Source: Austropuccinia psidii (Eukaryota > Basidiomycota > Pucciniomycetes > Pucciniales > Sphaerophragmiaceae). Taken from it: DNA of 64,000 nucleotides. Positions 7,481-61,240 of this stretch are shown piece after piece. Below the pieces are notes generated by a model. It made no database searches. It had not been told where the DNA came from and saw only the letters and a program-made list of their open reading frames with translations. A program made the translations under genes and the position numbers. Positions within the stretch are counted from its first letter, which is position 1; each line of letters opens with the position of its first letter. Where the stretch lies: positions 41,121,185-41,185,184 of the forward strand of contig JALGQZ010000003.1 of assembly GCA_023105745.1 (NCBI GenBank). Direction: 5' to 3'.

Positions 7481-10400
7481 TGTCTTTAATCAAGTATAGT
7501 GCAGCTGGTAATAAGCTCAGTAAGAGATATATTACTATTCCAGAATCTGAAGAAAGAATTGAAGTGAAATTTGCCAAAGGAGGCACTTTAGTGAGAGAAG
7601 AACAAGCCAAACAACCACCAAAAGGTGTGTGTTTTCTGTCTTTATCTTTTATTCTCTATTAAATTGACGTTAAAATGGTACAAGCCAGAAATGGAAGCAA
7701 CTATTCAGTCCAACCAGATGGATCTGGACAAGGAAGAGGCAACACCAATGTGAGCCTGTGCGCTATGTATAACATACCCATAAGGCCACAAATGACTTTA
7801 TATACAGTTGATTTAGTCTTCAACAGACTTTTCAATTGAATTTAAAATAAAAAATAATAAAAAATAAGTATAGCTTTTTTTGGATAAACAAAGTTATAAA
7901 TATTATGTCATTTTTGGATTCTACAGCAAAAATGACCTAGGGTACACCCATAGGGTGTTATACCCAAAAATGCTTATCTCTTATGTTATTGGAAGATTTA
8001 AGAATCTCACATTACTAATGTAAATTTTTTGACATTTTTTTAAAATTGTTAAATTTAAGCTTAAATAAGCTTAAATTTAAATTTGCATAAGGTTTATGCA
8101 AACTTACGAAAATTTTAGTTTAAATTGAGGTGTTCTGTATATTTACTGAATAGGCTGAGGATTAGCCACACGGAATGTAAATCCTGTGTGAGCTCAATTT
8201 AAAAGGGTTTAAGGCCATAGTATGGCTTAAATAAATAAAAGGAAAAAACCCACGCAAAAAGGTGGGACAAAGGAAAAAGACCAAACAGAGCTAAGGTACC
8301 TAACTTTTTGGATCTGCAAGGATTCAATTAAGGTTTTCCACCTTTATTGGAGGATTGACAACCTTATTGAACTTTAAGATTAGACTTTGATCCAACCTTA
8401 AGGTTTAAACTAGTTTTAACTCAATTTGGACAAGAATTTCAAGCTTCCAAAGGGTAAGTCCCAATGCGCAGGCTTGATATTAAAGTTTTGAAACCTGTCA
8501 AAGCTTAAATAAGCTTAAAACTTTAAGGTTACAAGCATTAAAACCTTATCAAAGGTTAAGGATTGGTGTGTATTGCTATTTTACGTGGAAAAGTAGTAAT
8601 AACTTCAAAAATTCATTCAAAATCCAATTCTTAATGGATTTGCTTGAAATTTCCCACAGCTTACAACTTAATATTATCTATATATAAATTAAATTTTAAG
8701 TATCTTTTATAAAGGTAATTCCTGGGTAATTAGCCTGGAAAGCTACTCTTTTAATTATAATTAAAGAAAATTAAGATTTCTTTGAAAATTCATTAAAAAT
8801 TGAGTTTAAGAGATTTCTGCTTGAAAGTATATCTTTAAGTTTTTCATGTGATGAAGGTTAATATAAATAAACTTATTTTATATTAAAACTCAAATTAATT
8901 AACTTAAATGAGGATTAAAGCTACTTGGAGTTAAGAATAACACTGGTAACTTTAAATTGGAATTCAAAATAAGTTACGTTAAGTTAAGAACCTTATTTTT
9001 AAGATTTTTTTTTCAGTTTTGGCCTGAGAACGCCCTCTAAATACATTATGAATCATGACAGCTTCCCTTTACACATAAAAACAGTCTTTTCATCACTGTT
9101 TTTGCCCATCAGAAATTATCAATTCAATCATATTAGACATTTAAACAGGTCAAGTTTTATTATATATAGAATCTTATTATTAAAGTATTTCTTAAGTATT
9201 TTATTCTTTGTAAGTCCTAAATTAAACAATTGAAATCATAGAAACTAGATTATTGTTGTAATCACCTATAATATATTTGATTTTATAGAATTATTGCCTT
9301 TAAAATATGTTTTGAAATCCACAAATTCTTCTCAAAAACTCTTTAAATCATGATTTTTCTTAGAAAAGGTTGTTTTATCTCTATAAATATTGATTTTTGG
9401 CGTGTTTTTAACTCATAAGTATTATTTAATATAATAACTGTTGTTGTTTGACTTATTGTATTAAATAAATATTACTAGTAAGTTTTCTCTAAAATTCTAT
9501 ATCTGATTTATCTATTATTACTCTTTTTATATAGAATTTTTCTATAAGAATTATTTCTTCACAGTGTGTGTTTTAATTATTTTATAAATAATACTTATAT
9601 ATTACTTAGAAGTGGTTAAATACTTATATTTTCCATTTTTAATTGTCTCATGAAGAGCTTTAAACTTCTTATTGTTATAATTGTCAGTGACTATAACAAT
9701 AATAGAATAAATATAGCTTATTATGATTATTATATTTATATATATATATAATTATTTTTAATGATTATATTGAAATTTGTGGTTATAATATCTTATTATA
9801 TTATATTTTTGTACTGAGGATAGTCATAGTACTCTTGATATTGTTACTATTATCAAGACTTTCATAGACAAACCTTACAACCAGGGCCAGATCTGATAAG
9901 TCTTCCTCAGCAAAGACATGTCTGGAGGATGCCAGAGTTTCCCCCCATCCCCCAAGGTCTGTACCTACAAGCTTTGATGTGAACTCTGAGCCTGAACTGA
10001 TTCAAGGTAATATTTTAAGGTCTTAACCATTTCCAAGTGGAAGCCATACAAATTTATCAGCCCAAGTACAAAAACTGGTACAAAGAAGCCAAGGAAGAGG
10101 AGTGGGAAATATTCCCAAGCCTTTGGTGGGGGGCGATGAACTCCTACTTACATATCAAGAGGTTTATGGGTCAGGAGAAGACCATAAAAATAGTGGGAGG
10201 GTGGAGCCCTTTTTTTTTGGAAAAACAAGGTCAAAAATATAAAGAATTGGTTGAATAACCAAAGTTTTTCATCCATAGACCTGAGGAAGGAGTTGGAATT
10301 GACCCCAGCTTTGGAGAAAGAAGGTCCAGTGGTGTCTGAAAGCTCCAGAAATTCCCAAAGACAAGCCCAAAGGACCTAAGACAAAGCAGAAATGTCTCAA

Positions 10401-39149: not shown

Positions 39150-39408
39150 GTCCCTTTTATTGGTTCTTGGTGTTGCAATTGGGAAATTGGAATATTTATT
39201 TGATTCCTCCCCTAGTTCTGTTTCTTGCTTTGGTGGATAGAAGTAATGATCAGAGTGAGTTGATCATTCAGATTTTTGAGATGATGGTTTTGGCTGATTT
39301 TGATTATTTGAATCCAGTTTTTGTTATACAAAATAGTATTCTTGAGTATTTAAGAATTTTTTAATTTATTGTAATTTAATTGATTTTTTATTGAAGTTGA
39401 GGTTATCT

Positions 39409-39426
39409 GCCACTGTTGGGACACCA
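39409..39426 (-). promoter_or_regulatory. Primer binding site of element III
   Basis: On the - strand, two bases after the 5' LTR, comes TGGTGTCCCAACAGTGGC. Its complement ends in ...TTGGGACACCA, with the CCA end of a tRNA, which is a convincing primer binding site. The tRNA species was not identified. Confidence 0.75.
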
Positions 39427-39428
39427 GA

Positions 39429-41402
39429 TGTGGGAACTCCTCTTGTGTGGGATTAAAATGAGGCAGTACCTGGAGGGGGAAATCACAGGTAACTAGTTTT
39501 GAATTGCTAATAACTCCTGTAACCAAGGGTGGCAAGGGTGTATTGCCTGCCCCTCCTAAAATACTGAACAAAATCTTCCTTGGAGCTCACAAACCAAAAT
39601 AAAGTTAGTAAGTGGCTTTACAACTGCAGAAGACAAAATTCAGCAGTCTCAGATCAGACCTATTCAATAAATAATATGAAAAATAATGTCAGTAATTTGG
39701 TAATTTGAGATTTTAATGAAATACTTGTCTGTTTAATTTTAATATTTTTTTTTTAGTGAAATTGGGGTGAGTGGTTTCTTCTTGGTGATACAAATTTGGT
39801 AAGATGGGTTTTTTTTAAGGTGTTCTGGAAAGTTGGATGAGTGTTGATAAAGGTAATTTTGTTAAGGTAAAGTTATAATAGAGTAAAATAATTTTTTTAA
39901 AGGTTTGTTATTTGTTTTAAGATTTGTTGATAATGAGATAAAATAGTATTTGTTATATTTAAAAGGTAAGATTCTTTGATATTGGATTTTTAAAGGGGTA
40001 AGTTATTTTTAAGTCTTGATAAATGGTGTTAATTTTACTGGATAAAATATTTTAATAGAGTAGTAACCCTAATATTGGGTACTGGATAATTTTTATTTTT
40101 ATTTTGATAATAATAAGATTCCACTGAGCTTAGCTACTGGGCAATCTTTAACACTATACTTCCACTGAGCTTAGCTACTGGGTAAGTAAATTCACTATAA
40201 TTTGCTGTACTACCTCCCAGATGAGGGATGACTTATTCCTGTGCTTGTAATCTGCAGAGGATATATTGTGCATGGGGGGGATTTTGAAATTTGGGGGGAG
40301 AGAGCCTCTCTATTTATACCTTTTGGGAGCCCAGGGGGCCCTCCATGTGAGCTGTCTTTTTCCACTTTAATTCCTCTTGATTTCATCATGTGACTCCATT
40401 TTTGGTGAGGACCTTTCTTGCATGGGTCAGGTGATTTAAGGTTTGGTGATAATTTTTCTCTGCACAGCCTTCTTTCATCACATGATGGTCTTTTGGTGAG
40501 CTAATTATGATGTGACTTTCTTGGATTTTCCTTGCATGCATGAGGTGATTTCATTTTGGCTGAGGATTTTTCTTGTGCACAGCTTTTTTTCTGTCACATG
40601 ATATTCTGTTGGTGGATGCAGTATCACATGATAACCTTGTAATTCCTTTGCATATGTCCTAATTTAGGCTGGGTAGAAATGGCTGTGTAATTTATGCAGG
40701 TGTCATGTTTGTTTTTCTTCTTTTTGAACTTTAAAATGAAGTCAGGTGATAACTTCTTGCATTGGTGAATTTACTGTTTTTTATGAGATGATGTGATTTT
40801 TGATTTTGACACATGCTGTGCATAGTCATGTGGTTGTGATTTAATTGGAATTGTGTACTGCATGCAGCCTGTTGTAGCTAGCTTTGGTTTGCATGAGGTG
40901 ATGAGTAGTGTAAATAATTATGTTTTAAGGTTTTAAGTGGGGATACTGTGGATATAAGATAAGGTACTCCTGGGGCTGTGTTGTAAATGAATTGCAGGAA
41001 TTCCATGGAGTTGAGCTTTGCATCATGTAACTTTGAATGCAAGTTGGCTGTATAACTAATGCATGTGTCATTTTCTTGCTGAATGAGTCCTGTGGCTGTA
41101 AGGGGGTGTAAAGCTGGGTGGGGTGTGTAATTTAAAGGGTGGTACCTCATTTGTTGTAACTAGTTTGCTATATGTAAATTGATTTTTTACATATGCATAG
41201 TGAAATTGAATAAGTTATTTAAACACATACACTTCCCTTTGGTGCCTGTGCCATGGTTTTATGAGTTAAATCCAGCTTCTTGCTGTAAAATTGACCTTTT
41301 GGTGTAAATTTTGAGTGTAAGTCTGCCTGTAGGCTGGATTTCCTGCTGTTATAGGGTACTATGAGCTTGAGCCTGGTGAAAAAAATGGTATGGAATACCA
41401 CA
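39429..41402 (-). repeat. 5' LTR of element III
   Basis: Partner of 22221-24189, with TG...CA ends on both strands. The outer flank at 41403 repeats gtat. Promoter signals were not resolved. Confidence 0.95.
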
Positions 41403-41961
41403 GTATGGCATCCTCTGCCAACCATTTGTCTTTGTCAGCTGTCTGGTTCTTGAATCTGACTAGATATTGTCTCTGATCCTTCCCATTGAGTCTGATTTTT
41501 CTGGCCCTGATGATCTTACTCACAGGTCCAGGAGAGTCCTCTACTTCCACTATTTCAGGTGGAGTGATGTTTTTCTTCCTGGAGGGGAATTTATCCTCTT
41601 CTGTCTGGAAGTATGGTTTGACCAGGCTTACTGGAAAGACTGGGTGTTTCCTAGAAAACTCCTCAGTGAGCTTGACCTCTACTGCATTCTTCCCTATCAA
41701 CTTAATGATAGTGAAGGGCCCTACAAATGAGTCTCTCATTTTCTTGGGTCCTTTGAGATTGTTAAAGTTTAGTGTAGACACTAACACCTGGTCCCCTTCT
41801 ATGAAGTCAGGTTCCATATGTGATTTGTCCCACCTCTGCTTATTATACTCTTTGGCCTCAGCTATGCATTTGGCAGCAGTATCACAGGCTTTCTTCCACA
41901 TATCATGGAAGTCTTTGGCTGTGGGGTGGATGGTCAGAAGATTTTTCTTCAGGTGATCCAC
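41403..41961 (-). pseudogene. Integrase C-terminus and chromodomain of element II
   Basis: The frame reads YNKQRWDKSHMEPDFIEGDQVLVS, FVGPFTIIKLIGKNAVEV, then KHPVFPVSLVKPY and a chromodomain-like RARKIRLNGKDQRQYLVRFKN and KWLAEDAI. It is separated from the integrase core by a 1-nt frameshift near 41975. It is cut at 41402 by element III and finishes at 22220-22128. A chromodomain would bind histone marks and guide integration. Confidence 0.85.
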
Positions 41962-43519
41962 AGGTAACAGGGGATTCCACCTTTCTCTACCAGTGCAGGT
42001 GTTTTTCCTGTGGTAGAGTGCTGGCTTGTATTATAAGCCAGTTGGACTGCTGGTAGGAGGGTGACCCAATCATGGGTATATCCTTCATGGTCCTTGTATT
42101 CCATGCCATAGGCACAGAACCTCCTGAGGATGTCCTCCATTGTTTGGATCATCCTCTCAGCTAGGCCATCTGTTTGTGGATGGTAAGCTGTGGAAAAAGC
42201 AAGCTTGGTGCCTAGCATGTCATATAAATTGGTCCAAAATTCAGATGTGAATTTTGGGTCCCTGTCACTAATTATGATCTTAGGGACTCCACAGGTGGAT
42301 ATGATGTTATTCCAAAATAACAGAGCAGTTTCCATGGCTGTGTCCTCTTTATGGCATGGTAGACATCTCATGCTCTTGCTGAACCTATCTACTATGATTA
42401 GGCAGGCATTGTAGTTTTCTTTGCCTCCTGGGACAATTCCTGTGACCCAGTCCATGTTGATGGTTTCCCATGGGTGTTTGGGTTCTTCTATGTGTTGAAG
42501 CAACCCATATTTTTTCCCATGTTTTCTATTTGCCTTTTGGAATCTTTCACAAGTGTTGATGTATTCACTCAACTCTTGCTCCCACTTGGGGCACCAAGCT
42601 GTGCTTGCTACCCTCTCTTTAGTCCTGTCCTCACTCATGTGTCCCATGTAGGGGCAGTCATGGCTTTCCTTCAGGATTAAGGAGATGTGGTCTCTGTCTA
42701 TCACTGTGAGTGCACTGGTGTGCTTTTCTCTGTGATAAATCAGGCCATCTATAAGGAAGAATTTATTGTCCTTATAGGCCCTCAACCAGGGTTCCTCCAG
42801 CTGGGTTTCCAGTTCTGGGCTCCTGTATTTTTGTTGAAGGAGTTGGAGTAGTATGCTACACTGTTTGTGTTTAGCATAGGATTTCAGTACTGCATTGAAA
42901 AATTCATTGTGCAATTCTGAGGAACTTATTCCCAGTATGGGGGTTTCTGTCCCTTCTGAATCAGTGTTTCCACTGTCAAGGGTACCACTCCCTGGTGCCC
43001 ATTCAGAGAATCTGAAGTTCTTTTTCCTATTTATTTCCATAAAATGGATAGGAATTTTTGCAGCAACTTCAGGGTCATAAGCTGGATTGCTTTTGACATT
43101 GTCCAGTGGCCATCTGCTAAGGCCATCTGCATTGGTATGGCTTTTACCTTCCTTGTATATGATGGTCATGTTCCCTCTATACTCCTGGATGGCTATTTGC
43201 CATCTCAGCATGTGTCTATTAGTAGTCTTCATGTTTAGTAAAGACTTCAAGGCTGTGCAGTCTGTGTATACTTCAAAGACTGCACCCTCCAAATAATAAT
43301 GGAGTTTTTCTAGAGCCCAGACTAGACATAGACATTCTGTCTAGGTGGCCCATACCTGGATTCTGAATCTTTCAGCTGCCTAGAGATGTAACATATTACA
43401 CCTTCTCTTGGCTCACCATCCACAATTTGTCTTTGGTGAAGGGCTGCTCCCAAGCCTTGGCTGCATGCTGCATCTATATATAACTTGAATGGTAGTTCAA
43501 AGTCAGGCAAGATGAGCAC
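41949..43519 (-). pseudogene. RNase H and integrase of element II
   Basis: RNase H starts in 43519-43322 (LYIDAACSQGLGAAL) and, after a frameshift with an added stop near 43335-43370, continues in the frame at 43292 ([34 protein letters not shown]). The integrase zinc region follows ([12 protein letters not shown]...INTCERFQK). Its last zinc ligand, expected to be Cys, is Phe. The catalytic residues are present: [16 protein letters not shown] and LAERMIQ. It ends in a frameshift at the GGIP/GWNP position. Confidence 0.85.
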
Positions 43520-43552: not shown

Positions 43553-46500
43553 CTATGCATCCCTCCTTTCCTTGGTTATTTCAAAAACTACATCCTTTGA
43601 GCATAACTTGTATAAACTACTAGTTATGTGAGCAAAGTTTTTGATGTGGTTTCTATAGTAGCTAGCAAATCCAAGGAAAGATTGCATCTCTTTGATGTTC
43701 TTTGGTACTGGCTTTTGCAGTACTGCTGCTACTTTGTTCTGGTCAATTGCCAGACTAAGGCCTGAGACTTTGTGTCCTAGAGCTAGTAGCTCTTGTTGTC
43801 CAAAATTACACTTTTTAAGTGAAATTTTCAGATTGATGGGTGTACATTTACTTAGCACTCTGTCTATGTATTGTACATGGTCTTCCCATGTCTCTGAGTA
43901 TATAATGATATCATCAATATACACTACCATCCAGCCTTCCATTATTTCTTCTTGAAATATGGTATCCATCATCCTTTGGAAGTGGGCTGGTGCATTCTTG
44001 ATGCCAAATGGCATCCTGGTGTACTCATATATGCCCATATGGAATATTATTCTGAGCAACTTCATGGAATTTGGTTTAACTCCATTTTGGTGGAAGCCTT
44101 TCATACAATCCATCTTGGTTATGTATTTGGCTTTGGCTAGCTTATCCAAGGCATGAGTTATCCTTGGTATAGGGTACCTGTCTGCTTTTGTGTAGTTATT
44201 CAGGGCTCTGAAATCTCCACACAATCTAGACTTGCCATCATGCCAGGTGATTAGGACAGGAGTGGTGATTTCCACTATTTCATTATGTCCAATCTTCCTA
44301 ATGACATCCATGTCCAGGAGTTCATTGATATGTTTCTCAATCTCTTTCCTGGTCTCCAGACTTGCTGGGTAAGGAGGTCTCCTTAACATGGGTGGATAAG
44401 GCCTTTCCACATCCAGATATAGTTCTATATCATGGCCTTTGATCTTGCCTAATGGTTCTTCACCAATGGCAAATGCTGGTCTATTCTTCCTCAGCATCTT
44501 CAGTAAACTTAACTTTTGTTTACTGGTGAGGGTAGTGCTAAACTGTCCCTCTCTGAATTCTTTCAGAAGTTCTTCCAGTGGGTCCTGAGAAGATATCTGG
44601 TATATATCAAGAGAAAATTTCTTTTCCTTGTTAGTACCAATGGTAATGTGCCTATTTTTACTATTGTAAATATCTATGCCATACATCCTCTGGTAATCTG
44701 TTCCCAGTAAAAACCCTTGGATGTGGGCATCTTCAAGCACTACAAACTCTGGGTTGAGTCTGATATTACCTTTTCTGTGGGGTATAATTCTCTCTTTGAT
44801 AATTGTCCCAATAGAGGTCATCTTTCCAGATGCACTCTTAAAGTTCTTTGCCCTGGTGGGCAAGAGTTCTTTTTCCAAGTTTGGGAAGTGGTTATCCAGA
44901 TAATTTCTGGCCACTATGGAGCAGTGTGCTCCACTGTCAATGATCAGTGGATGCTGAGCATTGTCAATACATACAGTCATTTTTGTGGCTGTTCCATGTA
45001 TGTATGCCATTCCTTTGGTTGGTGTAACCAGGAATGTTTGTGCATCTTGTGTATGTTTACAAAAATTCTTGTTGGCAGTGTCTTGTGGCATTCCTGCTTC
45101 CAACTGTATATCCTGGATTTCTAGTGGGGTTTCCTCTTGGTATTCCACTAGAAATTCCTCTCTTGGGTCTTGATCCTCATCAGATGGTTCTCTAATGGCA
45201 TCACCCATAGAGTCTGATTCAGAATCCTCTGTTGGAGGTTCTTCTTCAGGGACTTTTTCTATAGCATAGACTTTCTTCTTTGCTTTTGGACAGTTGTTGG
45301 CATAGTGGTCTGTTGAACCACAATTGTGACAAGAATTCTTCTTCTTTGCCACTTCTGCCACTCTTTCTCTGGGTTTGTCTTTAAACTCCACCCTGAAAGG
45401 TTGTTTCTCTTTGAAACTACTGCTTCTATATGGGGTGAATTTCCCTATATTAGTCCTTTTCCTTATGTCTTGTAAGGTATTGGCTATATCATCTAGAGTG
45501 CAATTTTGGTTGCATCTGCACTTTACTGCATGCTCTAGTTCTCCTGGCAGTTGTGTCAGAAGTTTATGATTCCTCATTTGAATGTTCATTTGAGGATCAA
45601 TGGCTTTAAGTCTTTTAGACTGTCTAAGACACCACTCATATGGATCTTTGTCAACAGAGTATTTGTCATTTTCAAATGACATGGTCTTTTGCCATATCCA
45701 AGTTCCATTACTGTACTTTTGGATTATTTGACTCTTCCACCATGGCCAATTTCTTCTGCCATGGATTTCCTTCATTTCAGTGTACCATATACTTGCATGA
45801 CCTTTAAATGCAGTATTCAGTCTAGCAGTAATCCACTAATCTGGTATGCTTGGTACATCAATGAAGAGTCCATCAATATAATCTATGAGTTCCATATGAT
45901 CATATTCTCCTGATCCAGAGAATTTGGGCCAGCTTGAGGCCTCAGGAAGCTGTTTCAAGGCTTCCTTCTCTGAATAAGACATGCCAACTCCATCCTGGTA
46001 TTGTGATGAAGATCTTGCCTTATTCAACAACATGGCATCTGGTTTGATGTCATCTGGTTGATATGGATTCTCCATAGCTTGGCCTTGTGGTTGGGGCTTT
46101 AAGCTATGGTAGGAATCAAACAATTTGTTGATGTCTTGGTTCAGACACTCCCTGTCCCTGCTACTATGGTGTTGTTCTTCAGAGACTTGATTCAGTCTCT
46201 TGTTGGTTTCTTCAGAGGCTTTGCTCAGTTGAGCATATCCTTCCTGAAGGTTTTTAACTATCTGCTCCAATGAGGCTTGAGTTTTTCTCATCCTCTCTTG
46301 GGCAGCTGCAAATTCTGTAGCCTGCGTTGCAGATTGCTCAGCATATTGGGACATTTGTAACCACAGTGTGTCACTGTTGATGTTACTCTCAGATGTGATA
46401 ATGTTATTTTCAGTCTGAGTGGGGGTAATGTTTCTATTACTAGGACTACTGATTCTAGAGTGGTTTACAACTACTTCTGGTTCTTGTGTACTTCTTTTAC

Positions 46501-47191
46501 CAAATCTAACAGCTTCTGGATCATGGGGTCTGACTCTTTCCTCCTCTGGTTGAAGGAGGATTTGTTCTTGCCCTTGTTGCCTTGTCTTCTCCTGGAAACT
46601 TCCTGGAATTGTGAAGAATGGTGACTCTTGGCCACTGATCTCCTGGTTTCTGAATGGTGTGAAGCCACTGGAGAGCTGATTTGGCATGCTCCTTGTGAAC
46701 CTCAACGAATCTGAGTAGGCCCTGTCTGGGTTAACTGTTCTTCTATAGCTTGGATAGTGGCTTGATTCTCCCTTATCCTCTGTGCCCTTGCCTCCAGGAG
46801 TCTGTGCTGCCTGGTAGGATTCCAACCGTTGGTGATTACCATAAGGTCTTTGAAGTCTATCTCTTTGAGACAGATCTTCTGGCAACTTGATCCCAGTTCT
46901 GCCCAGTGAGTTGCTAGGTTGAACCTCCTGTTGTCCATGCTCCATTGAAACAAATCTTTGAGGAGTTGGTGGATTTGAAGAACTTGATCCATATCCTTCC
47001 AGTCCTCTGGTTTGAGGTTTCTGTTGAATTGGAGTGTGAATGGCAAGGTTGATATTATCTCCCTCATTGTTTTGCCATCCACCACTGTGTCCAATGTGTC
47101 TTCTTTCAGGTCTTCTGGTTCTAGACATTCCTGCTCTATCCTCTGGCTGGTTCCTTTGGAAGCCAAGGTCTCTGAGGTATGCAGGGGACAT
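43553..47191 (-). pseudogene. Gag-protease-RT frame of element II
   Basis: The ATG at 47191 opens a 451-codon frame to an amber codon at 45836-45838, and the same frame continues 740 codons from 45775 to another amber at 43553. Order: disordered Ser/Gln-rich N-terminus; coiled-coil-like region (QASLEQIVKNLQEGYAQLSKASEETNKRLNQ); capsid-like gag across the first amber; zinc knuckle [14 protein letters not shown] (about 45290-45330); protease DSGA (near 44930); RT with [12 protein letters not shown] and YIDDII (near 43910). The start codon lies inside the intron of the overlapping accessory gene, so only unspliced RNA can encode Gag. Both RT aspartates are kept. Confidence 0.88.
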
Positions 47192-47539
47192 ATCAGTGTT
47201 TGCAAGCAGTCAAAAACTTTATGTTCTTAGGGTATTTACCTTTGACTGTGCCTTGTACAAATTTGTTATCTGCTGATTTGGTCAGTTTGCCTTTGGAGGT
47301 TACAACTGGGTTAATAATTGTAATCTTCCCTGTACAAGTGGTTAAGGTTGGTTTACCTTGTATTGAAGCAGAGTTTCGTGGTTTTCTACTCCTCTGAGTG
47401 GCTATTGGTGTCCACTTCTTGGCTGTAATGAGGCCTTCACTAAGCCTTTTTTCTTTACCCTTGCTGCCCTCTGGTTCTGAGGGTGTCACTGGTGTGTTGG
47501 CCTGTGACTGGGTTTCAAGTGGGATGTAGTTTTCTTCCA
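46471..47539 (-). CDS. Spliced accessory gene overprinting gag in element II
   Basis: Exon 1 is 47539-47240, with no Met codon and with its upstream edge at a CAG acceptor. The intron is 47239-47172 (68 nt, GTAAAT...CTCAG, phase 1). Exon 2 is 47171-46471. Splicing joins VK and E to TLASKGTSQRIEQE in frame. Exon 2 encodes a Trp-rich helical domain (FQWSMDNRRFNLATHWAELG, DLMVITNGWNPTRQ, ATIQAIEEQL), then a Ser/Lys/Arg-rich linker and a last helix (MIQKLLDLVKEVHKNQK). It lies +1 to gag, which is open over the same DNA. One TGA (46702-46704) breaks this copy; element IV has TCA there. It looks like a real protein, but its function is unknown. Confidence 0.65.
47172..47239 (-). other. 68-nt intron carrying the Gag start codon
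   Basis: The donor AAAG|GTAAAT and acceptor ATACCTCAG|A enclose 68 nt. The Gag ATG (47191-47189) lies inside, 17 nt before the acceptor end. Element IV has the same intron (52000-52067), also 68 nt, with the ATG at 52048. Splicing would remove the Gag start. Confidence 0.65.
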
Positions 47540-48086
47540 CTGAATCAAGACAGGAAAAAGAGGGCTTATGTCAGTTAAGACTTCTTAAAAGGCTGGTTTT
47601 GCACGTCTAAGAATGGCCTCTGGGCTTGTATATTATTACAATATGCCCTTGTATAATGACAGTGTAATTGAATTAACAATTTCACGTCAAAAATACAGCT
47701 TATGGTGCCCTGTCACACTGTTTGTGTGCCAGTATCCCACAGATACACTTGTGGTTTTCAAGTGTATTCTGTACAAGTGGTTTTGTATAGGTGTTATTGA
47801 GTCAACAATACACTTAATCCACGCCTCAACTGATGGTTTTTCAGTCAGAGGTGTCCTTATTCAGTCAAGAATACAGGACTTATTGATGGCTGATGTGTTT
47901 TATATACAAAACACGCCAAAAATAATTATTTTCAGTGGGTATTAGCCACGTGAAAAATACTCTTTTATAATATGAGTATATGAAAAAAGATAAAAATATA
48001 TAAAATATACATATTTAAATGGAAATTACACCTAAAAAAAGATGAAACAATGTGTTAATAAGTCATAAAAAAGAGAAAAGACTTAC
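47540..48086 (-). other. Putative leader intron of element II
   Basis: A consensus donor ACCA|GTAAGT begins at 48086, 47 nt after the LTR, and a pyrimidine-rich acceptor (ctgtcttgattcag) ends at 47540, where the ATG-less accessory exon begins. Element IV has the counterparts (donor GTGAGT at 51125, acceptor at 51699). The exon that would supply the ATG was not identified with certainty. Confidence 0.45.
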
Positions 48087-48109
48087 TGGTAAGGTCCAAA
48101 AAGTTAAAA

Positions 48110-48132
48110 AAAAAACGGCCAGGCCCCAAAAC
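48110..48132 (-). promoter_or_regulatory. GC-rich block after the 5' LTR of element II
   Basis: On the - strand, GTTTTGGGGCCTGGCCG directly follows the LTR. It is the counterpart of the blocks at 7089, 51079 and 57122 and stands in the primer-binding-site position. Confidence 0.5.
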
Positions 48133-49554
48133 TTTCAGGCTGAGTCTATGATAAAGGTGTATATGAGTATTTACAAGCTTTAGCTATGACTGTGACACGG
48201 TAAAAATGGTTTTAAAAGATGATAAGATTGATAATAAATGATTTAATTTAAGATTTAAAGGGCTTTACTATAAAGATATAGTGGTGGTGAGCGCTGTTGA
48301 AAGCCATGGGTGCAGCTTTACCTGTTGGATTACAATAATAAAGACTACAATACTTTAAATTCAGAGTATACCTGATTATTTAACCAAGAGTAAAACTGTT
48401 TTTGACAGTTTACTACGTAGGTTATTCAAGAGCAGGATGAGGAAAGGTTTTTGGCTGTGAAAAGCCCTCCTTTTATCCTGAAATTGGGATGGAAAGGCTG
48501 CTAGACCTTTCCACGTAGAGGAAGTGAAGATTTTTCACTCTCCAGGACAGGCTTGTCGTTTTCAAACAGCCTGTATACCCTGTATTGGGCTCAGATGTGG
48601 TTTTGAAACCACATCTGGGCAGTTTTCACCAATACAGGGTGAAAATTTTCATCTGAGGACCTCACAGCCTGATTCTGACGTGTATGACGCGTAGAATGCT
48701 GTACAGAAGCTGTATGGGACCCCAGTATTGACTGACATATGAGGTATTGAAGTAAAAACATGCTTCTTCATCTATTTGACACCTCATATTCATGGTTATG
48801 GGATATTATCCCATGGTAAGGCTGTATCTGACAGCAGGTGGGATTTTGACCTTAAAATGGCCATAACTCTGTCAGTTTTTGAGATATCATTTAATAGCCC
48901 TGTATGAGCTCTACACAATGGTACCCAACTTGACATGGTTATCATTAAATATGACAAAGTTATCCCATGTACAAGTATTTTTGTACATTGGCGTGGTCTG
49001 GTCAAAAGCTGTATTAAGCTTGTTTGGCCAATAACTTCTGTTGTAGTTGGGTTATGAGGGAATGGATGGAGCCATCAGATAGCCCTGATTGTGCTCTTTC
49101 CAAAAAGACCCCACTTTAGGTATCTCACACTAAAACTGTAAAAGTTAGATGAGAGGTGAATGTTTTGTTCTCCCTTATTTGGTCTGAATTTGACCATAAC
49201 TCAAGTAATACTTGTGCTAGCTCAGTTTGGCTGGTACCATTGGATAGCCCTGGCTTAGAGCTTCATTTTGAATACCCATTTGATGGGGTTAAGCCTCTCC
49301 TTCTAGATTTTAGATGAGAGGTGAAATTTAAGGTTTATGCTCAGCAATAACTTGGAGCAGGAATAACTTTGTTATTTCTTGTCCTATGGTGATGGGACTT
49401 ATATTTTCAGAAAGAGGTGAGTTTCCTCTTTCTTCTGATACCTTTTGAGCTAATTTGGCTCAGCTGCATGTTTTGGTGGTATTTTGGCTATACCATTGGT
49501 TTATGGTATTTTGGCTGTCATGCTTGTGCTCTGGTTTTGAGTCACAGGCTGACA
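48133..49554 (-). repeat. 5' LTR of element II
   Basis: Read on the - strand it starts TGTCAGCCTGTGACTC. It ends CCTGAAA where its partner has CCTGACA. It pairs with 20689-22127 and lies head to head with the LTR of element IV, 89 bp away. Confidence 0.93.
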
Positions 49555-49643
49555 ATCATGAGGATAATAATACCAAGTAAAATCATAAAAGAAAACTCAC
49601 CTGAAGCCAAATACAATAGATCAATGATTCAAAAAAAGTCATA
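49555..49643. other. 89-bp spacer between elements II and IV
   Basis: It begins with the second atcat of the target duplication of element II and continues the pre-insertion DNA that ends at 20688. Nothing else is recognised. Confidence 0.8.
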
Positions 49644-51078
49644 TGTCAGCCTGTGACTCAAAACCAGAGCACAAGCATGACAGCCAAACACCATAAATCA
49701 ATGGTGTAGCCAAGATACCACCAAAACATGGAGCTGAGCCAAATAAGCTCCAAAGGTATCAAATGAAAGAGGAAATTACCAATTCCCAAATATACAAGTC
49801 CCATCAACATAGAACAAGGAAGAACAAAGTTATTCCTTCTCAAAATTGTTGCTCAGCATAAAACTTAATTTTCACCTCCCATCTGACATACAGAGTCAAA
49901 GGATTAACCCCATTAAGTGGTTATTCAAAATGAAGCTCTACGTCAGGGCTATCAAATGGTACTAGCCAAACTGAGCCAGCGCCAGTATAACAGATGTTAT
50001 GGCCAAATTCAGGCCAAATAAGGGTGAAGAAAATATTCACCTCTCATCTAACTTCTACAGTTTTAGTGTGAGCTACATAAAGTGGGTTCTTTTTGGAAAT
50101 AGCACAATCAGGGCTATTTGATGGTGCATTAATTGCCCAATATCTGATCTGGACCAAAAGGTATAAGGCAAACAAGCCAAATGCAGCTTTTTGCCTAAAA
50201 CACGCATATTAACAGAAATGTTGTACATGGCATAACTTTGCCATATTGAATGAGAACCATATCAAATGGGGTACCAATGTGTAGAGCACATAAAGGGCTA
50301 CACACTAAACAAATTTTGAGGTTGATATCTCAAAACCTGACAACGTTATGGCTGTTTTAAGGTCAAAATCCCACAGTTTGGCCAATACAGCCTTACCATG
50401 GGATAATATCCCAAAACCATGATTATGAGGCGTCAAACAGACAAAGAAGCTTGTTTTTACTTCAATACGTCATAGTGCATTCAATACTGGGGTCCCATAC
50501 AGGTTCTGTAAAGCATTCTACGTGTTATACACGTCATAATCAGTCTGAGTGGTTCCCAGATGAAAATTTTCACCCTGTATTGGTGAAAGCTGCCCAGCTG
50601 TGGTTTCAAAGCCACATCTGAGCCCAATACAGGCTATACAGGCCTTTTTCAAACCACAAGGCCATCCTTGAGAGTAAAAAATCTTCACTTCCTCTACGTG
50701 AAAAGGTCTAGCAGCCTTTTCACCCCATTTCAGGATAAAAGGAGGCCCATTCACTTCCAGAAAAGGAATCCCAATCCTGCTATTGAATTCCTATGTAGTA
50801 CAGCTTTTAATAACAGTTATACTCTTAGAAAATAAACAGGTTATACTTTAAGCTTAAGTATTGTAGCTCTTATTATAGTAATCCAACTGGTAAGACTGCA
50901 TGCAGGGCTTTCATCAGCGCTCACCACCACTATAATATTATATTAAAGCCCTTAATATCTTAATTAAAATCATTGATTATTACAAATCAACTCTTTTTTA
51001 AACTATTTTCACTGTCTCAAAGTAATAGTTAAAGTGAAAATACTATTATACACCTTTTATCATAGACTCAGCCTGACA
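49644..51078 (+). repeat. 5' LTR of element IV
   Basis: It starts TGTCAGCCTGTGACTC and ends GACTCAGCCTGACA. It is the reverse complement of the LTR of element II at 48133-49554, with more differences than the two LTRs of II show between themselves. Confidence 0.93.
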
Positions 51079-51699
51079 TTATTGGGGCATGGCCATGTTT
51101 TTTTTACCTTTTTGGACCTTATAAGTGAGTTTTTCTCTTATTCTCCTTATTCTGACAAATTGTTTTATCTTTTTTAGGAGTAATGTTTTAATAAAAATAT
51201 ACATAATATATATCTTATATATATTTTTACAGTGGTATATATCCTATACCACCATTATTTATCTTCTTTAATCATATTGTTGCATGGTTGATTATATTTT
51301 AATCACCACAACACCCTTTTTTTGGCGTGTTTTACATATAAAAACCCTTTAAACCATTAGTAAAGTCCTTTTTTTAATTAAATAATGACACCTCTTACTG
51401 TAGAACCAACAGTTGAGGAATAGTTGGGTGTATTGTTAATTCAATTACCCTCTTACATACCACTTCTTATCAGATTAAACTTTCTAATTACAAGTTAATC
51501 TGTGAGATACTGGCACAAAAACAGTATACCAGATATCTGTAAGCTGTATTTATGAAGTGAAATTGTTAATTCAAATACACTGTTATTATACAAGGGCATA
51601 TTGTAGTAACATACAAGCCCAGAGGCTATTCTTAGACTTTAAAACAGCCTTTTCAGAAGTCTTAACTGACATTAAGCCCTCATTTCCTGTTTGATTCAG
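51079..51699 (+). other. Leader of element IV with putative intron
   Basis: It opens with TTATTGGGGCATGGCCATG in the primer-site position. A donor-like AA|GTGAGT stands at 51125 and a gattcag acceptor ends at 51699, matching the leader intron of element II. It contains no ORF of note. Confidence 0.5.
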
Positions 51700-52768
51700 T
51701 TGAAGAAAAGTACATACCACTAGAGACACAGTCACAGGTCAACACACCAGTGACACCCTCACAACCAGAGGGCAGCAAGGGCAAGGGAAAGAGGCACAGT
51801 GAAGGCCTGATTACAGAAGAAAAGTGGACAACCATTGCTACTCAGAGGAATAGAAAACCACAAAACTCTGCTTCAATATAAGGTAAAACAACCTTAACCA
51901 CTTGTACAGGTAAGATTACCATAATTAACCCAGTTGTAACCTCTAAAGGTAAATTGCCAAAATCAGCAGACAATAAATTTGTACAAGTCACAGTCAAAGG
52001 TAAATAACCTAAGAACATAAAGTTTTTGACTGCTTGCAAACACTGATATGTCACCTGTACCCCTCAGAAACCTTGGCTTCCAAAGGAACCAAATGGAGGA
52101 CAGAGAAGTCTTGTCCTGACCCAGAAGACCTGGAAGAGGACACCTTGGACACAGTGGTGGATGGCAAGAAACTGAGGGAAATCATACCAACTCTGCCATT
52201 CACTTTCCAATTCAACAGGAGCCTCAAACCAGAGGACTGGGAAGACATGGATCAAGTTCTTCAGCTCCACCAATGCCTCAAAGTTTTATTTCAATAGAAC
52301 ATGGACAACAAGAGGTTCAACCTGGCATCCCACTGAGTAGAATTTGGAGCAAGTTTCCAGAAGATTGTTCTCAAAGAGATATAATTCAGAGACCTTATGG
52401 TAATCACCAAAGGTTGGAATCCCACCAAGAAGTTCATACTCCTGGAGGTGACGGCAAAGAGGATAAGGGAGAACCAAGACACTATCCAAGCTATAGAGGA
52501 ACAGCTGACCCAGACAGGGCATACTCAGATTCCTTCAGGCTCACAAGGAGCAGGCAAAATCAGCTCTCCAGTGGCTTCACAACATTCACAAACCAACAGA
52601 TCAGTGGCCAATAGTAAACATTCTTCACAATCCCAGGTAGCTTCCAGGAGAATACAAGGATACAAGGGCAAAAACAAGACCACCTTCAGTCAGAAGAAAG
52701 GAGATTCAGACCCAATGATCCACAAGCTGTTGGAGTTAGTTGAAGAGGCGCATAGGAACCAGAAGTAG
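51700..52768 (+). pseudogene. Accessory gene of element IV, broken
   Basis: Exon 1 is 51700-51999, the intron 52000-52067 (68 nt, phase 1, same sites as in element II), exon 2 52068-52768. The frame joins VK and E to TLASKG as in II. It has a TAA near 51880 and a stop at 52295-52297 with more before 52397, but 52397-52768 is open through the basic linker to the same end (MIHKLLELVEEAHRNQK). The region where II has a TGA is open here. Confidence 0.6.
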
Positions 52769-57121: not shown

Positions 57122-57349
57122 TTTGGGGGCCCAGCCATGATATTTTACCTGTGACATAATTTTTTTACTTTTTTTAATCTTTTTCCTTATATTGAAAAAA
57201 CCCAAAATATATAAAAAATACTCATAATTCAAAAAATCCTTAAAAAATAATTCATTTTTATAATTATAAGTGAGCCTTTATTTTTCTTTTGTAAAACCTT
57301 TTTTACCTAATTAATTGTTTTTTTTTCATTAATTTTAGTGTGTGACAAC
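57122..57349 (+). other. Leader of element V
   Basis: It begins TTTGGGGGCCCAGCCATGA, the GC-rich primer-site block shared with I, II and IV. A pyrimidine-rich acceptor (attttag) ends at 57338, just before the first short ORF. Confidence 0.5.
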
Positions 57350-58250
57350 ATGGTAAGACAAGAAAATATTGAAACAGCCTCAACAGTTAATAGCATTATT
57401 CCTGCAAGCACTGTGATTTCTGATCATAATAGCACTGTTATTATAACTCAGAATAACCAACAAGAGCCAATTTCTTCTGAATTGGTCAATGTGGATATCA
57501 GTAATACTCTTCAAAAAGCCAAAAATTTGGCAAATAGTCAGTTTTTGATGTAAAATTACTATTTTAAACCTTTTGAATCATAAAATATGCCTTCAACCTG
57601 ATCAGGAGCAAGCTATACGCCCTCAAGCAGCTCCCAAAAAGGTCATAGACATGATTATGGTAGAATCCAATCAGATACAGAAGGACAAGGGTCAGTAAAA
57701 GACTTCTGCAACAATAAATTGTCCAATTCGGAAGCTTATGTCACTATTTTACCTTCAAAAAGAGCTGACACCGCCACAAGAAGCCTCAGTAGACATTTAC
57801 AAAGCCAGCCAAACGGCTTACAGCAAGGCATTGCAGCACAAAGAGTACCAGATCCTTGCATATCTGTGGAAAAAGTGCATGAACTCATACCTGACTGTAA
57901 GAAGATTCCTGGGTCATCCCAACACTTGCAAGTTACTCAATGGATGGCAACCATTGACATAAAAGAAGAATATGATGCTTTTAACAGCAGAATGGAGGAA
58001 AGAAAACCCTCCACCACCAAAGAAAGTGCCAAGACCAGCCCCAGTAGCCAGCAGCAGCAATTTCAACATGAAAAAGCAGCCACAAACTCCAAACAAGGGC
58101 AAAGGGAAGGCACCAGCCCCAAAACCTTACAGCCAGGGCTACAGAATCCCAAAGATTCAGCAGGATGCCATGGAAAATGTATTTCAGATGGCCAGAACCA
58201 TGATGGAAGTACAGAAGAAGCAGGAAGCCAGATTAAGATTCCAGAAATGA
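57350..58250 (+). pseudogene. Accessory gene region of element V
   Basis: A short first ORF (57350-57553) is followed by an acceptor-like gatcag at 57605. From 57606 the accessory frame is open apart from TAA codons at 57696 and near 57963. It encodes a Trp-rich segment (NSYLTVRRFLG, LLNGWQPL), a Pro/Lys-rich stretch (NKGKGKAPAPKPYSQGYR) and a final helix (MENVFQMARTMMEVQKKQEARLRFQK). It lies +1 to gag, as in elements I, II and IV. The matching donor could not be placed in the right phase. Confidence 0.55.
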
Positions 58251-61240
58251 TTTCTGATATATTTGATTCCATCCCAGAGTTGTATGAAGCTATAAATGAT
58301 GTGAAAAATCATCTTTCTGATAAAAATGAAACCATTTGTAACAACATTAAAACAAACAACTTGAGTTGGTGCCAAATTAATGAAACACTTATGTGTTTTG
58401 AAATTTTTTTAAGAACAATTAAAACTTCCAATAATGATAGTTCTTCTGGAAATAAAATAAATGAACAATCTGCCATTATTAAAGAATTAAAAGACAAATA
58501 TTCTAAATTTAATATTGATGAAATAATTGAAACAAGAAGTAAACAAGCCATAAATATTATCAAGAAAGATAACAAGAAAGTCTTTGATGACATTTCAAAT
58601 TCATTTACTGAAGTAAAGACCTATACCATTGCATTAAAAAAGTGTTTTGATGCTTCACAAGAAGAAGTATCAAAATTATCAATGAAATTAAATCAAGTCA
58701 CTACTTATAATAAAAGACAGACAGAGGTATGGCAAGAGCTGAAACATAAGGAAGACATGTATAAAATTGAAGTATTAAATTTAATACAAGCCTTCCAACA
58801 TGAATACAGAGATTCCCAAAGGTGTAGCAACAGTAAAATGAATGATATTGAAAAAATACTGAACACCTTACCAAGAATGTCTACACCTCTGAATCAAAAT
58901 GAGGGCACAAGAACTCCAAATCCATAAGTGATTGATCCTGATAATTCACAGTTAAAAAATGAATTTCTGCTTCTTTTCATAACTTGAAACCATCAATGGG
59001 CCAAGCACATTTGAAAGAAGTACCAAAACTTAAAGACTGGCCTTGCTTCGTAGTGAAGGAGAATATTACCATATGGAATTCATCAGAGGAATTGACATGA
59101 ATGAAGAAGATTTTGAATTACCAGACAGATTGGTAACAGCAAGATTTAACACCTTGTTGACCAGATCAGCTCACAGATGGTATATCAAATTAGGACAAGC
59201 ACATGGAAACAAAAGTTGGACTTGGTGGAAAACCCAAATTATCAACAAATGGGCCAATCATGCCTGGAGATTTAAAGTGGAAACAGCCTTTGAATCTGCC
59301 AAATTTAATGCAGATAAATACAAAGCTTTACCATGGTTTTGCCAACAAAAAGACAGAATAACAGCATTATATCCTGACATGTAAGAGTTTATGATCCACA
59401 GAAAGATTCTGAGACAATGTGGAGGTGACTTAGAGCATGCTGTCAAAGGCAGGACTACTGACCAATATTCAGCAGAGGATATTATTGTCAGGGTGAGTCT
59501 ATATAGTAGCTATAAAATGTAGTGACAAGCTAGTATTATGACTGTGACACGTCAAAAAACAAATAAATTTAATTCTTCAGGTCCTACTGCTACATGGTAA
59601 CAGTGGTGATGAGTCTGTTGAGGACCTGGGTTGCAATACTCTAATATCTTTGAATGTAAAGAAGTGCTACAATAATTATATTCTAATTATATCTTGAATG
59701 ATAATTCTAAGGACACTACTTATTGATAACAGTTTTGTCATGTAAGAATATGGATAATGAGATAAAGATGATGGGTTTTCAAGGAAAAAACCCTTTTTTT
59801 ATATCTTTCAAGACTGTCAAGAGTTATTAACTCTTCACACGTCAGAGGAGTGAAAATTTTCACTCCAATGATCAGTCTGTGGTTCCGGATCATCAATTCT
59901 GACGTCAATAGAGGCAGAATTGTGGTTTTGGAACCACAAATGATTATTCTGGATCAATACAGGGTGAAAACACTTTTCACCTGCCACGTCAGCACTTGGA
60001 TGACGTTGTTCTGGTGTCTGTATGATCAATAATGATGATCTTAGAGAGGTTATATCTTCATAAGTATATTATTTTAAGTATGAGAGCAATACTCTTTGAT
60101 ACAAGTTTGATATAGTCATGTATTGCTAGAAAAACCTTCCAATCATGATATCCCAGTCAGATATTAAGATATCAAGAAACCAAGAGCACAGAATTGAAGG
60201 GCTTAGTGAGTTCTTCAAGTTGGTATGCTTCATGTTTGCCCTTCTTTAAAAGAGCAAAAGTTAGAATGGTTTTAAGTTTTTGGATGTATTTTTGTACATC
60301 AGTATGAGGCTTAAAAAACTTCCATACCAGATATATTCTTCAATTTGGAAGATATCTGTATTCTGATGATACAGTATTGTAGGGCTTGATTAGCTCTACA
60401 GTCTTGTATATTACACTGTACAGTTGTATGAGTGTATGCCAAAGATACAGGGGTTTGTTTACATTGTTGTTTTCAGAATATCTGTATTTTGGTGGTTAAA
60501 CCTTTGAACCAAGATCCCTCAGTCAATTTAAGAGATACAGAGGTCTAAGGAGTCTCAAATTAAAGCTCTTGTTTAGATCTTTAATTTGGTTATACTTTTG
60601 TACAGTTTTGTACAAGCTGTCTTTGACTTTCAGGGGGTCTTGGTTTTAAAATAAATGTCATATGGTATCTCCAGTTGTAGTGCTGTTACAGCAACATGGA
60701 TGATACCATTTTGTAGCTCTCTATGTGAGCTTTAAGAAAATATTTCTTTGGTATAGAATAACTTAAACATGCATAAGTTAGATGAGAGGTGAAAATAAGG
60801 GTTTTGACTTGTTTATTCTCCTCTGGGTTTCCTTATTCTGTTTGGATAAGGTTGGTGTTTGATTTAAGAGGTGTTTTTCCTCTTATTTATTACCTGTATT
60901 GACTATGTTTGTTCAATACTTGTCATAAAATTATTTATGGTATGTTGGATTTCATGCTATTGGTGTGCTCTGTTTTGAGTCACAGGCTGACAATTATCAA
61001 TATATTAGAAGCAGTAACCACCAGAACCAAAATTGGTTATAGTAGGGTGAATCTCAAAACAAGGCTTGATACACCTTAGTAAGATTCAGTGGACAAAAAC
61101 CCCAAAGAAAACTCTCATAATGTTAAGTATAAATCTGCAGATAAAGTCAGAAACTGCCGTATTTGCCAAAGCGCCACCCATCTAGCCAATACATGTCCAA
61201 AAAGGGGGAAAATCAATTAAATTGATAAGGAAAGGAACCT
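57587..61240 (+). pseudogene. Gag of element V, split by a solo LTR
   Basis: The gag ATG (57587) lies 16 nt before the acceptor at 57605, followed by an early TGA. The same frame then runs openly through 57719-58927 (Ser/Gln-rich N-terminus; coiled-coil region with KTYTIALKKCFDASQEEVSKLSMKLNQV). The capsid-like part is in 59043-59384 (FIRGIDMNEEDFELPDRLV, WTWWKTQIINKWANHAWRF). The solo LTR at 59486-60992 splits the frame after AEDI; it resumes with NILEAVTTRTKIG and reaches a zinc knuckle CRICQSATHLANTC (61154-61195). Confidence 0.8.
59486..60992 (-). mobile_element. Solo LTR of the element II/IV family
   Basis: On the + strand it starts TGTCAGGGTGAGTC and ends GAGTCACAGGCTGACA, so its sense direction is -. 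It is flanked by a perfect 5-bp duplication, attat at 59481-59485 and 60993-60997. It is more diverged from the LTRs of II and IV than those are from each other. It represents an insertion followed by LTR-LTR recombination. Confidence 0.92.

What the first reader, a model, noticed from the sequence alone, without database searches (positions are those of the whole stretch)
46471..47539. Gag start codon sits inside a short intron of an overlapping accessory gene
In element II a 68-nt phase-1 intron (47239-47172) joins an ATG-less ORF to a second ORF that is +1 to gag and overlaps about 700 nt of it. The Gag ATG at 47191 lies within the intron. Element IV keeps the same two splice sites, the same 68-nt length, phase and ATG position (52000-52067, ATG 52048). 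Element I, a diverged family, has a 64-nt phase-1 intron (7625-7688) with an ATG at 7675. This suggests a splice switch: unspliced RNA makes Gag-Pol, spliced RNA makes an accessory protein, as in complex retroviruses but built differently.
Basis: partly seen in the sequence, partly recalled or inferred. Interest (0 to 1): 0.92.

Follow-up and report, generated by a model that had tools for sequence, protein, structure and literature searches.

The report
Splicing chooses between two start codons
In several jumping-gene families of what looks like the myrtle rust fungus, a small intron holds the start of the virus-like shell protein, so splicing the RNA seems to switch production from that protein to a second, overlapping one whose own start codon appears to be made by splicing.

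The parts
48087..48445 (-). Element II putative 5' UTR exon (part of the LTR plus leader) ending ...ACCTTACCA; its start is assumed from a TATA-like TAAAAGG in the LTR
   Evidence: the only strict GTRAGN donor between 48445 and 47540 is at 48086
47540..48086 (-). Element II proposed leader intron, 547 nt, GTAAGT ... TTAACTGAC...TTGATTCAG; splicing would make A|TG
   Evidence: donor and acceptor align with IV
48032..48086 (-). Element II alternative short leader intron, 55 nt, GTAAGT...TTTTTTTAG
   Evidence: similar sequence in IV
47240..47539 (-). Element II accessory exon 1, first codon N|TG then GAA GAA AAC TAC (EENYIPLETQ...), no ATG in any frame
   Evidence: 24 of 38 substitutions against IV at third codon positions
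47172..47239 (-). Element II 68-nt phase-1 intron
47189..47191 (-). Gag start codon inside the intron
   Evidence: 108 of 120 listed Gag-frame models start here
46471..47171 (-). Element II accessory exon 2, +1 frame of gag; nonsense at 46704-46702 in this copy, family stop at 46473-46471
45836..47191 (-). Element II Gag frame up to an in-frame stop (45838-45836); the same frame goes on into the CCHC motif and RT
51125..51699 (+). Element IV proposed leader intron, ...CCTTATAA^GTGAGT to TTGATTCAG^TT
   Evidence: three other GTRAGN sites lie in the same stretch
51700..51999 (+). Element IV accessory exon 1 (one stop at 51879-51881)
52000..52067 (+). Element IV 68-nt intron with Gag ATG at 52048
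52068..52768 (+). Element IV accessory exon 2 overlapping gag (both frames carry stops)
7481..7624 (+). Element I accessory exon 1, AG^TG TCT TTA ATC
7625..7688 (+). Element I 64-nt intron with Gag ATG at 7675
10019..10255 (+). Element I accessory frame downstream of an apparent insertion
57270..57338 (+). Element V proposed leader intron, 69 nt, TTATAA^GTGAGC...CTAAT...TTTTAG^TG
57339..57549 (+). Element V accessory exon 1 (A|TG TGT GAC AAC...); 3' boundary uncertain
57550..57605 (+). Element V second intron, 5' boundary uncertain; Gag ATG at 57587
57606..58250 (+). Element V accessory exon 2, +1 frame of gag (two internal stops in this copy)
57602..58927 (+). Element V gag-frame ORF, open for 441 codons

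Best explanation
These are Ty3/Gypsy-type LTR retrotransposons with a two-exon accessory gene laid over the start of gag in another frame. Unspliced RNA: the accessory ORF has no start codon, scanning ribosomes meet few AUGs before the Gag AUG inside the short intron, and Gag-Pol is made. Spliced RNA: one splice joins a noncoding leader exon ending in A to an acceptor followed by UG, making the accessory AUG (A|UG); the second splice removes the Gag AUG and joins exon 1 to exon 2 in the +1 frame of gag. One splicing decision therefore toggles which protein is made. SHOWN by sequence: the sites and ATG positions, exon-1 codon periodicity, openness of gag beyond chance, accessory-frame conservation between families I and V, A before the leader donors of II, IV and V, TG after the acceptor in I, II and V. 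INFERRED: that splicing happens, that the leader splice supplies the AUG, that Gag starts at the intronic ATG, and any function. The role I think most likely, a guess from precedent, is a nuclear or RNA-handling factor acting on the element's own unspliced RNA.
Against: No transcript evidence; the MF-1 gene models are predictions, and of 120 listed 27 show a gap at the junction (another splice or a kept intron) and 1 is too diverged. In V 43 of 120 listed models show the junction, 13 show a gap, 64 do not span it, and the reference for that count was itself made from such models. Accessory stops given the Gag protein are not fewer than chance in II (P 0.68) or IV (P 0.97); V 0.015, I 0.012. 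In I the gag frame given the accessory is not unusual (P 0.18). Codon periodicity in the overlap of II and IV is not significant (49/29/36, P 0.07), nor in the gag-only tail (39/34/41, P 0.71). IV has AG^TT, which with A gives ATT, not ATG, and three other GTRAGN sites in its leader; element I has no strict leader donor. V's ATG depletion is not significant (P 0.068), and V has 3 ATGs between the start of exon 1 and the Gag ATG. In the upstream leaders TGC and CTA are depleted as strongly as ATG. Predicted accessory start exons differ between models. Accessory proteins of II and V show no detectable homology.
Confidence: 0.72

Rival explanations
1. The short intron is always spliced, the intronic ATG is unused, and Gag-Pol is made as an extension of the accessory protein by frameshifting or by reinitiation near the end of the overlap; the long gag-frame N-terminal part is not translated.
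For: The accessory frame is the one conserved between families I and V while the gag frame is not. The gag-only tail shows no codon bias between II and IV. In V the accessory stop overlaps a gag-frame ATG (ATGA, 58247-58250).
Against: The gag frame is kept open across the whole overlap in II and V against 8.56 and 7.65 expected stops, and 108 of 120 listed Gag models run from the intronic ATG. Accessory exon 1 lacks Met and few ATGs precede the Gag ATG, which this model does not need. In II no gag-frame ATG lies at the accessory stop.
Confidence: 0.14
2. The leader intron is spliced but the short intron is kept for Gag: ribosomes start on accessory exon 1, stop in the retained intron and restart at the Gag ATG.
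For: In II the retained-intron stop TGA lies one base before the Gag ATG (TGATATG); in I a TAA ends 12 bases before it.
Against: A 100-codon first ORF is a poor setting for reinitiation (general knowledge, recalled). A V-family model (P0248) reads through the intron without a stop. ATGs are few inside the long leader intron of II (2 against 10.2, 0/2000) and fewer than expected in IV (4 against 8.7, P 0.03), which suggests that RNA keeping that intron is translated; but other trinucleotides are as low.
Confidence: 0.1
3. Chance: decayed retroelement sequence with accidental open frames and splice-like sites.
For: II, IV and V carry stops in one or both frames and I is interrupted; splice consensus motifs are short; the gene models are predictions.
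Against: Same layout in three families about 50-60% identical in RT, hundreds of predicted relatives (867, 890 and 478 hits, 120 of each listed), codon-level and between-family conservation.
Confidence: 0.04

Closest known systems
CERV of Cer1, a C. elegans Gypsy/Ty3 element (PMC10309623; abstract and passages seen)
   Same: An LTR retrotransposon with a lineage-specific accessory protein from a spliced mRNA; one exon (exon 4) is in a different frame from gag; unspliced RNA makes Gag and Pol.
   Different: [quoted passage not shown] Here the accessory gene sits over the start of gag, shares no frame with it, and the intron holds the Gag ATG.
Yeast GCR1 intronic start (PMC7826247; passages seen)
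   Same: Unspliced RNA starts translation at an ATG inside the intron, spliced RNA at another ATG.
   Different: A host gene whose two products differ at the N-terminus but share a frame; here two unrelated proteins in overlapping frames.
BARE1 and EVD Ty1/Copia spliced Gag mRNAs (PMC3735527, abstract and section list seen; PMC8892269, passages seen)
   Same: An LTR retrotransposon uses splicing of its RNA to change which protein is made.
   Different: There the spliced RNA makes Gag; here splicing would remove the Gag start codon and make another protein.
MDG1-group sORF1 and sORF2 upstream of gag in Drosophila (PMC11952523, a preprint; passages seen)
   Same: Accessory ORFs between the 5' LTR and gag.
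   Different: No evidence of splicing was reported for the full-length transcripts there, and the ORFs are described as upstream of gag rather than overlapping it in another frame.
HTLV-type tax and lentiviral rev (recalled, nothing read for this)
   Same: Splicing joins exons of a regulatory gene that overlaps another gene in a different frame.
   Different: Infectious vertebrate retroviruses; no homology tested here.

Membership tests
Ty3/Gypsy LTR retrotransposon | RT, RNase H and integrase in that order, with a CCHC motif before them | tested here: met
   Pfam zf-CCHC and RVT_1 on the 43553-45835 ORF; RT_RNaseH, Integrase_H2C2 and rve on 41949-43340; no protease family was reported for these ORFs at E up to 0.001
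Ty3/Gypsy LTR retrotransposon | Flanking long terminal repeats | tested here: met
   II LTR segments 48135-49200 and 20691-21780, 1047 of 1066 aligned bases identical; full LTR ends were not mapped
Retroelement with a spliced accessory gene (Cer1/CERV-like or complex retrovirus-like) | Spliced and unspliced RNAs both exist | not testable with these tools
   No transcript data; sites and gene models only
Retroelement with a spliced accessory gene (Cer1/CERV-like or complex retrovirus-like) | A conserved coding frame distinct from gag and pol | tested here: met
   exon 1 periodicity, I-V conservation
CERV protein family | Sequence homology to CERV | tested here: inconclusive
   No nematode protein among the 120 listed of 867 hits or the 120 listed of 478; the unlisted hits were not seen, and CERV itself was not fetched or compared
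Split start codon (A|TG) | Leader exon ending in A joined to an exon starting TG | tested here: inconclusive
   Sites in II and V fit; IV has TT; I has TG but no strict donor; no RNA

The most novel reading that the evidence does not exclude
The two start codons exclude each other by construction. The Gag AUG exists only while the intron is kept; the accessory AUG exists only once a splice junction has been made (A^UG). A single splicing decision thus toggles the element between particle and template production (Gag-Pol) and an overlapping regulatory protein, in several rust-fungus Gypsy families. By analogy with CERV the accessory protein may act on export or use of the unspliced RNA.
Probability: 0.5. 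Interest if true: 0.85.

Novelty: new variant of a known kind. Interest (0 to 1): 0.72.

Why it matters
Fungal LTR retrotransposons are usually thought of as simple gag-pol elements (general knowledge, recalled). Here, in what is probably a genome reported to be over 90% transposable elements and mostly Gypsy (PMC8063080, passages), families with hundreds of predicted relatives appear to carry a dual-coded, splice-switched accessory gene. If true it is a compact solution to a general retroelement problem, how one RNA serves as genome, Gag-Pol mRNA and accessory mRNA, and it can be tested with RNA data that the genome paper reports having made. It would also mean that many 'hypothetical proteins' of the MF-1 annotation are copies of retrotransposon accessory genes.

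Tried and rejected
Genome-wide DNA copies: the genome search (own) gave 'busy or cannot be reached' (16 times), so DNA tests rest on the window's own copies. Genome-contig scan with the accessory alignment: 98 pattern matches, none confirmed. Pfam, NCBIfam and solved-structure searches of accessory proteins: nothing convincing (P0002). AlphaFold models of the II and V accessory proteins: mean pLDDT 57.3 and 55.4, helical with low-confidence parts, too weak for a fold search, which I did not run. Homology between II and V accessory families: not detected. Element III (35424-39263): I looked only at ORFs from 38000 to 39900 and noticed no comparable upstream gene; this was not a rigorous test. 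A fixed ATG upstream of accessory exon 1: some MF-1 models read through the acceptor from an ATG (P0005, P0011, P0032, P0117), but II and IV both have TAA in that stretch, so I prefer a spliced leader. ATG-specific depletion in the upstream leader alone is not clean, since TGC and CTA are as low.

Literature: I saw nothing describing this layout in the listings of searches of the held open-access library (listings are capped; subscription papers are not held). One search was for the MF-1 annotation method and did not settle it. The main text of PMC12210899, on rust-fungus transposons, has no occurrence of 'intron' or 'gag' (passages). PMC8063080 was seen as passages only.
Full report
WHAT THE WINDOW IS. 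The window is 34.6% GC and holds several nested Ty3/Gypsy-like LTR elements. The 120 listed of 867 relatives of the spliced accessory peptide, the 120 listed of 890 relatives of the Gag N-terminal part and the 120 listed of 478 relatives of the element V accessory peptide are all named Austropuccinia psidii MF-1 hypothetical proteins; the unlisted hits were not seen. The A. psidii genome is reported at 33.8% GC and over 90% transposable elements, mainly Gypsy (PMC8063080, passages). I therefore take the host to be A. psidii or a very near relative; this is inferred.

In element II the 68 nt from 47239 to 47172 run GTAAAT...CTGAT...CAG, and the Gag ATG at 47191 lies in its last 20 nt. Removing the intron joins the ORF 47539-47240 to the ORF that is +1 to gag. 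Element IV has the same at 52000-52067 with ATG 52048. Of the first 51 nt the two introns differ at one, against 15.7% in the first part of the overlap and 24.7% in the aligned leader; over all 68 nt they differ at 5. Element I has a 64-nt counterpart with ATG 7675. In this copy of II the accessory frame has a nonsense codon at 46704-46702 and gag-pol one at 45838-45836; IV has 4 internal accessory stops and 5 gag-frame stops in the overlap. The copies are damaged; the layout is shared. II is fairly young: its LTR segments match at 1047 of 1066 aligned bases.

A FOURTH COPY AND THIRD FAMILY. A tblastn of the element I accessory frame hit 57777-57956 with 35% identity over 60 aa, E 4e-12. This is element V. 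It has a leader donor TTATAA^GTGAGC at 57270, a 69-nt intron to TTTTAG^TG (57338/57339), an exon 1 whose relatives nearly lack Met, a Gag ATG at 57587 inside a second intron that ends CAG at 57605, and an accessory frame +1 to gag from 57606 to 58250. This copy has a TGA shortly after its Gag ATG, where some related models read on (MPSTRSGASY..., P0302), and the 5' end of its second intron cannot be fixed.

BOTH FRAMES LOOK CODING. (1) Exon 1 between II and IV: 24 of 38 substitutions fall at third codon positions (P 0.0005). (2) Holding the accessory protein fixed and permuting synonymous codons, the gag frame would have 8.56 stops in II and 7.65 in V; both have none (0 of 5000; P 0.0002). In IV it has 5 against 10.5 (P 0.014), in a short piece of I 1 against 2.4 (P 0.18). 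The reverse test, accessory stops given the Gag protein, is weak: P 0.68 in II, 0.97 in IV, 0.015 in V, 0.012 in I (the counts include the accessory gene's own final stop in II, IV and V). (3) Between families I and V the accessory frame aligns 20.7 s.d. above shuffles (0 of 1000 as high), while the overlapping gag frame is at 0.1 (419 of 1000). The accessory frame is thus the one with conservation detectable between these families; the gag extension over it evolves freely in sequence but is kept open. The overlap's codon periodicity between II and IV is only suggestive (49/29/36, P 0.07), and the gag-only tail has none (39/34/41). II and V accessory proteins show no detectable homology, nor do II and I or V by pairwise shuffles (88 and 180 of 1000), so shared ancestry of all three accessory genes rests on position and layout.

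GENE MODELS OF OTHERS. Of 120 listed accessory models 92 carry the exact II junction (ungapped 8 residues either side, at least 9 of 17 identical), 27 have a gap there, 1 is too diverged. Of 120 listed Gag-frame models 108 begin at the intronic ATG. In family V 43 of 120 listed models span the junction without a gap, 13 with a gap, 64 do not span it. These lists are chosen by similarity to my query, and the models are predictions whose method I could not establish; they are not transcripts.

WHERE THE ACCESSORY ATG COMES FROM. In I, II and V its first bases after an acceptor with a pyrimidine tract are TG (AG^TG), with the frame set so that the first codon is N|TG. The strict donor GTRAGN occurs once in the II leader (48086, after CCA) and once in V (57270, after TAA); the homologous IV donor (51125) also follows A, but IV has three more GTRAGN sites. 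Joining A to TG gives ATG, in II within ACCATGG. Exceptions: IV has TT, and I has only a weak GTAAAA donor (7437). In 120 listed II-family proteins the residue before the EENY block is V (20), L (16) or M (11) and never I or F, 10 models are 5'-partial starting exactly at EEN, and 63 have no recognisable block; this fits NTG as the family state, though many V cases are read through from upstream rather than spliced. In family V 16 of 120 listed models are partial starting at SDN or alike and 2 start M-SDN or alike.

WHY AN ATG-LESS EXON MAKES SENSE. From LTR end to Gag ATG there are 2 ATGs in II (13.1 expected, 0 of 1000 shuffles as low), 1 in I (7.0, P 0.001), 6 in IV (13.7, P 0.002) and 4 in V (7.6, P 0.068); the antisense strands of all four leaders and the stretches downstream of the Gag ATG in II and V have ordinary counts. 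From the start of exon 1 to the Gag ATG there are none in II, IV and I and 3 in V. Met is nearly absent from accessory exon 1 in the models (II 7 of 10240 residues against 387 of 17223 in exon 2; V 6 of 2916 against 876 of 20181). This is what is expected if unspliced RNA must be scanned to the Gag ATG. Caution: in the pooled upstream leaders of II, IV and I ATG is the third lowest of 52 trinucleotides, behind TGC and CTA, and taken alone the I leader upstream of exon 1 is not significant (1 against 3.8, P 0.07).

MECHANISM. Unspliced RNA gives Gag-Pol; fully spliced RNA gives the accessory protein. Shown: the anatomy and the selection signals. Inferred: the splicing, the split AUG and the Gag start. 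The accessory protein's function is a guess. In II its exon-1 part and its C-terminal tail are basic (pI 10.0 and 10.8) and the middle acidic (pI 5.3); low-confidence models show helices in the middle and at the C-terminus. A role in handling the element's own unspliced RNA, as shown for CERV of Cer1 (PMC10309623), would be the natural first hypothesis.

KNOWN RELATIVES OF THE IDEA. CERV (spliced, partly in a different frame, needed for genomic RNA export), GCR1 (start codon in a retained intron, PMC7826247), BARE1 and EVD (splicing to favour Gag, PMC3735527, PMC8892269) and MDG1-group sORFs upstream of gag (PMC11952523) each share one feature. I saw no description of this combination in the listings of searches; the library lacks most subscription papers.

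Noticed in passing
57699-57770 and family V proteins P0245-P0283: Family V accessory models come in two forms, with or without a stretch like GQLMTSKLINYVILKLIILFYLQ, as if a second alternative intron lay inside accessory exon 2.
   Followed up: partly
47195-47189: If the short intron is kept, accessory exon 1 ends at a TGA one base before the Gag ATG (TGATATG); the TGA is also part of the branch-point-like CTGAT.
   Followed up: partly
20691-49200: Element III (repeats near 22.2-23.2 kb and 39.4-40.4 kb) appears to lie inside element II, whose own LTR segments are at 48.1-49.2 kb and 20.7-21.8 kb.
   Followed up: partly
48135-51070: The 5' LTRs of II (minus strand) and IV (plus strand) stand almost head to head.
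   Followed up: no
family V proteins P0253, P0274, P0277, P0281, P0301, P0355: UniRef names several accessory proteins 'No apical meristem-associated...', but Pfam gave no such match at E up to 1.
   Followed up: yes
58247-58250: In element V the accessory stop overlaps a gag-frame ATG (ATGA).
   Followed up: no
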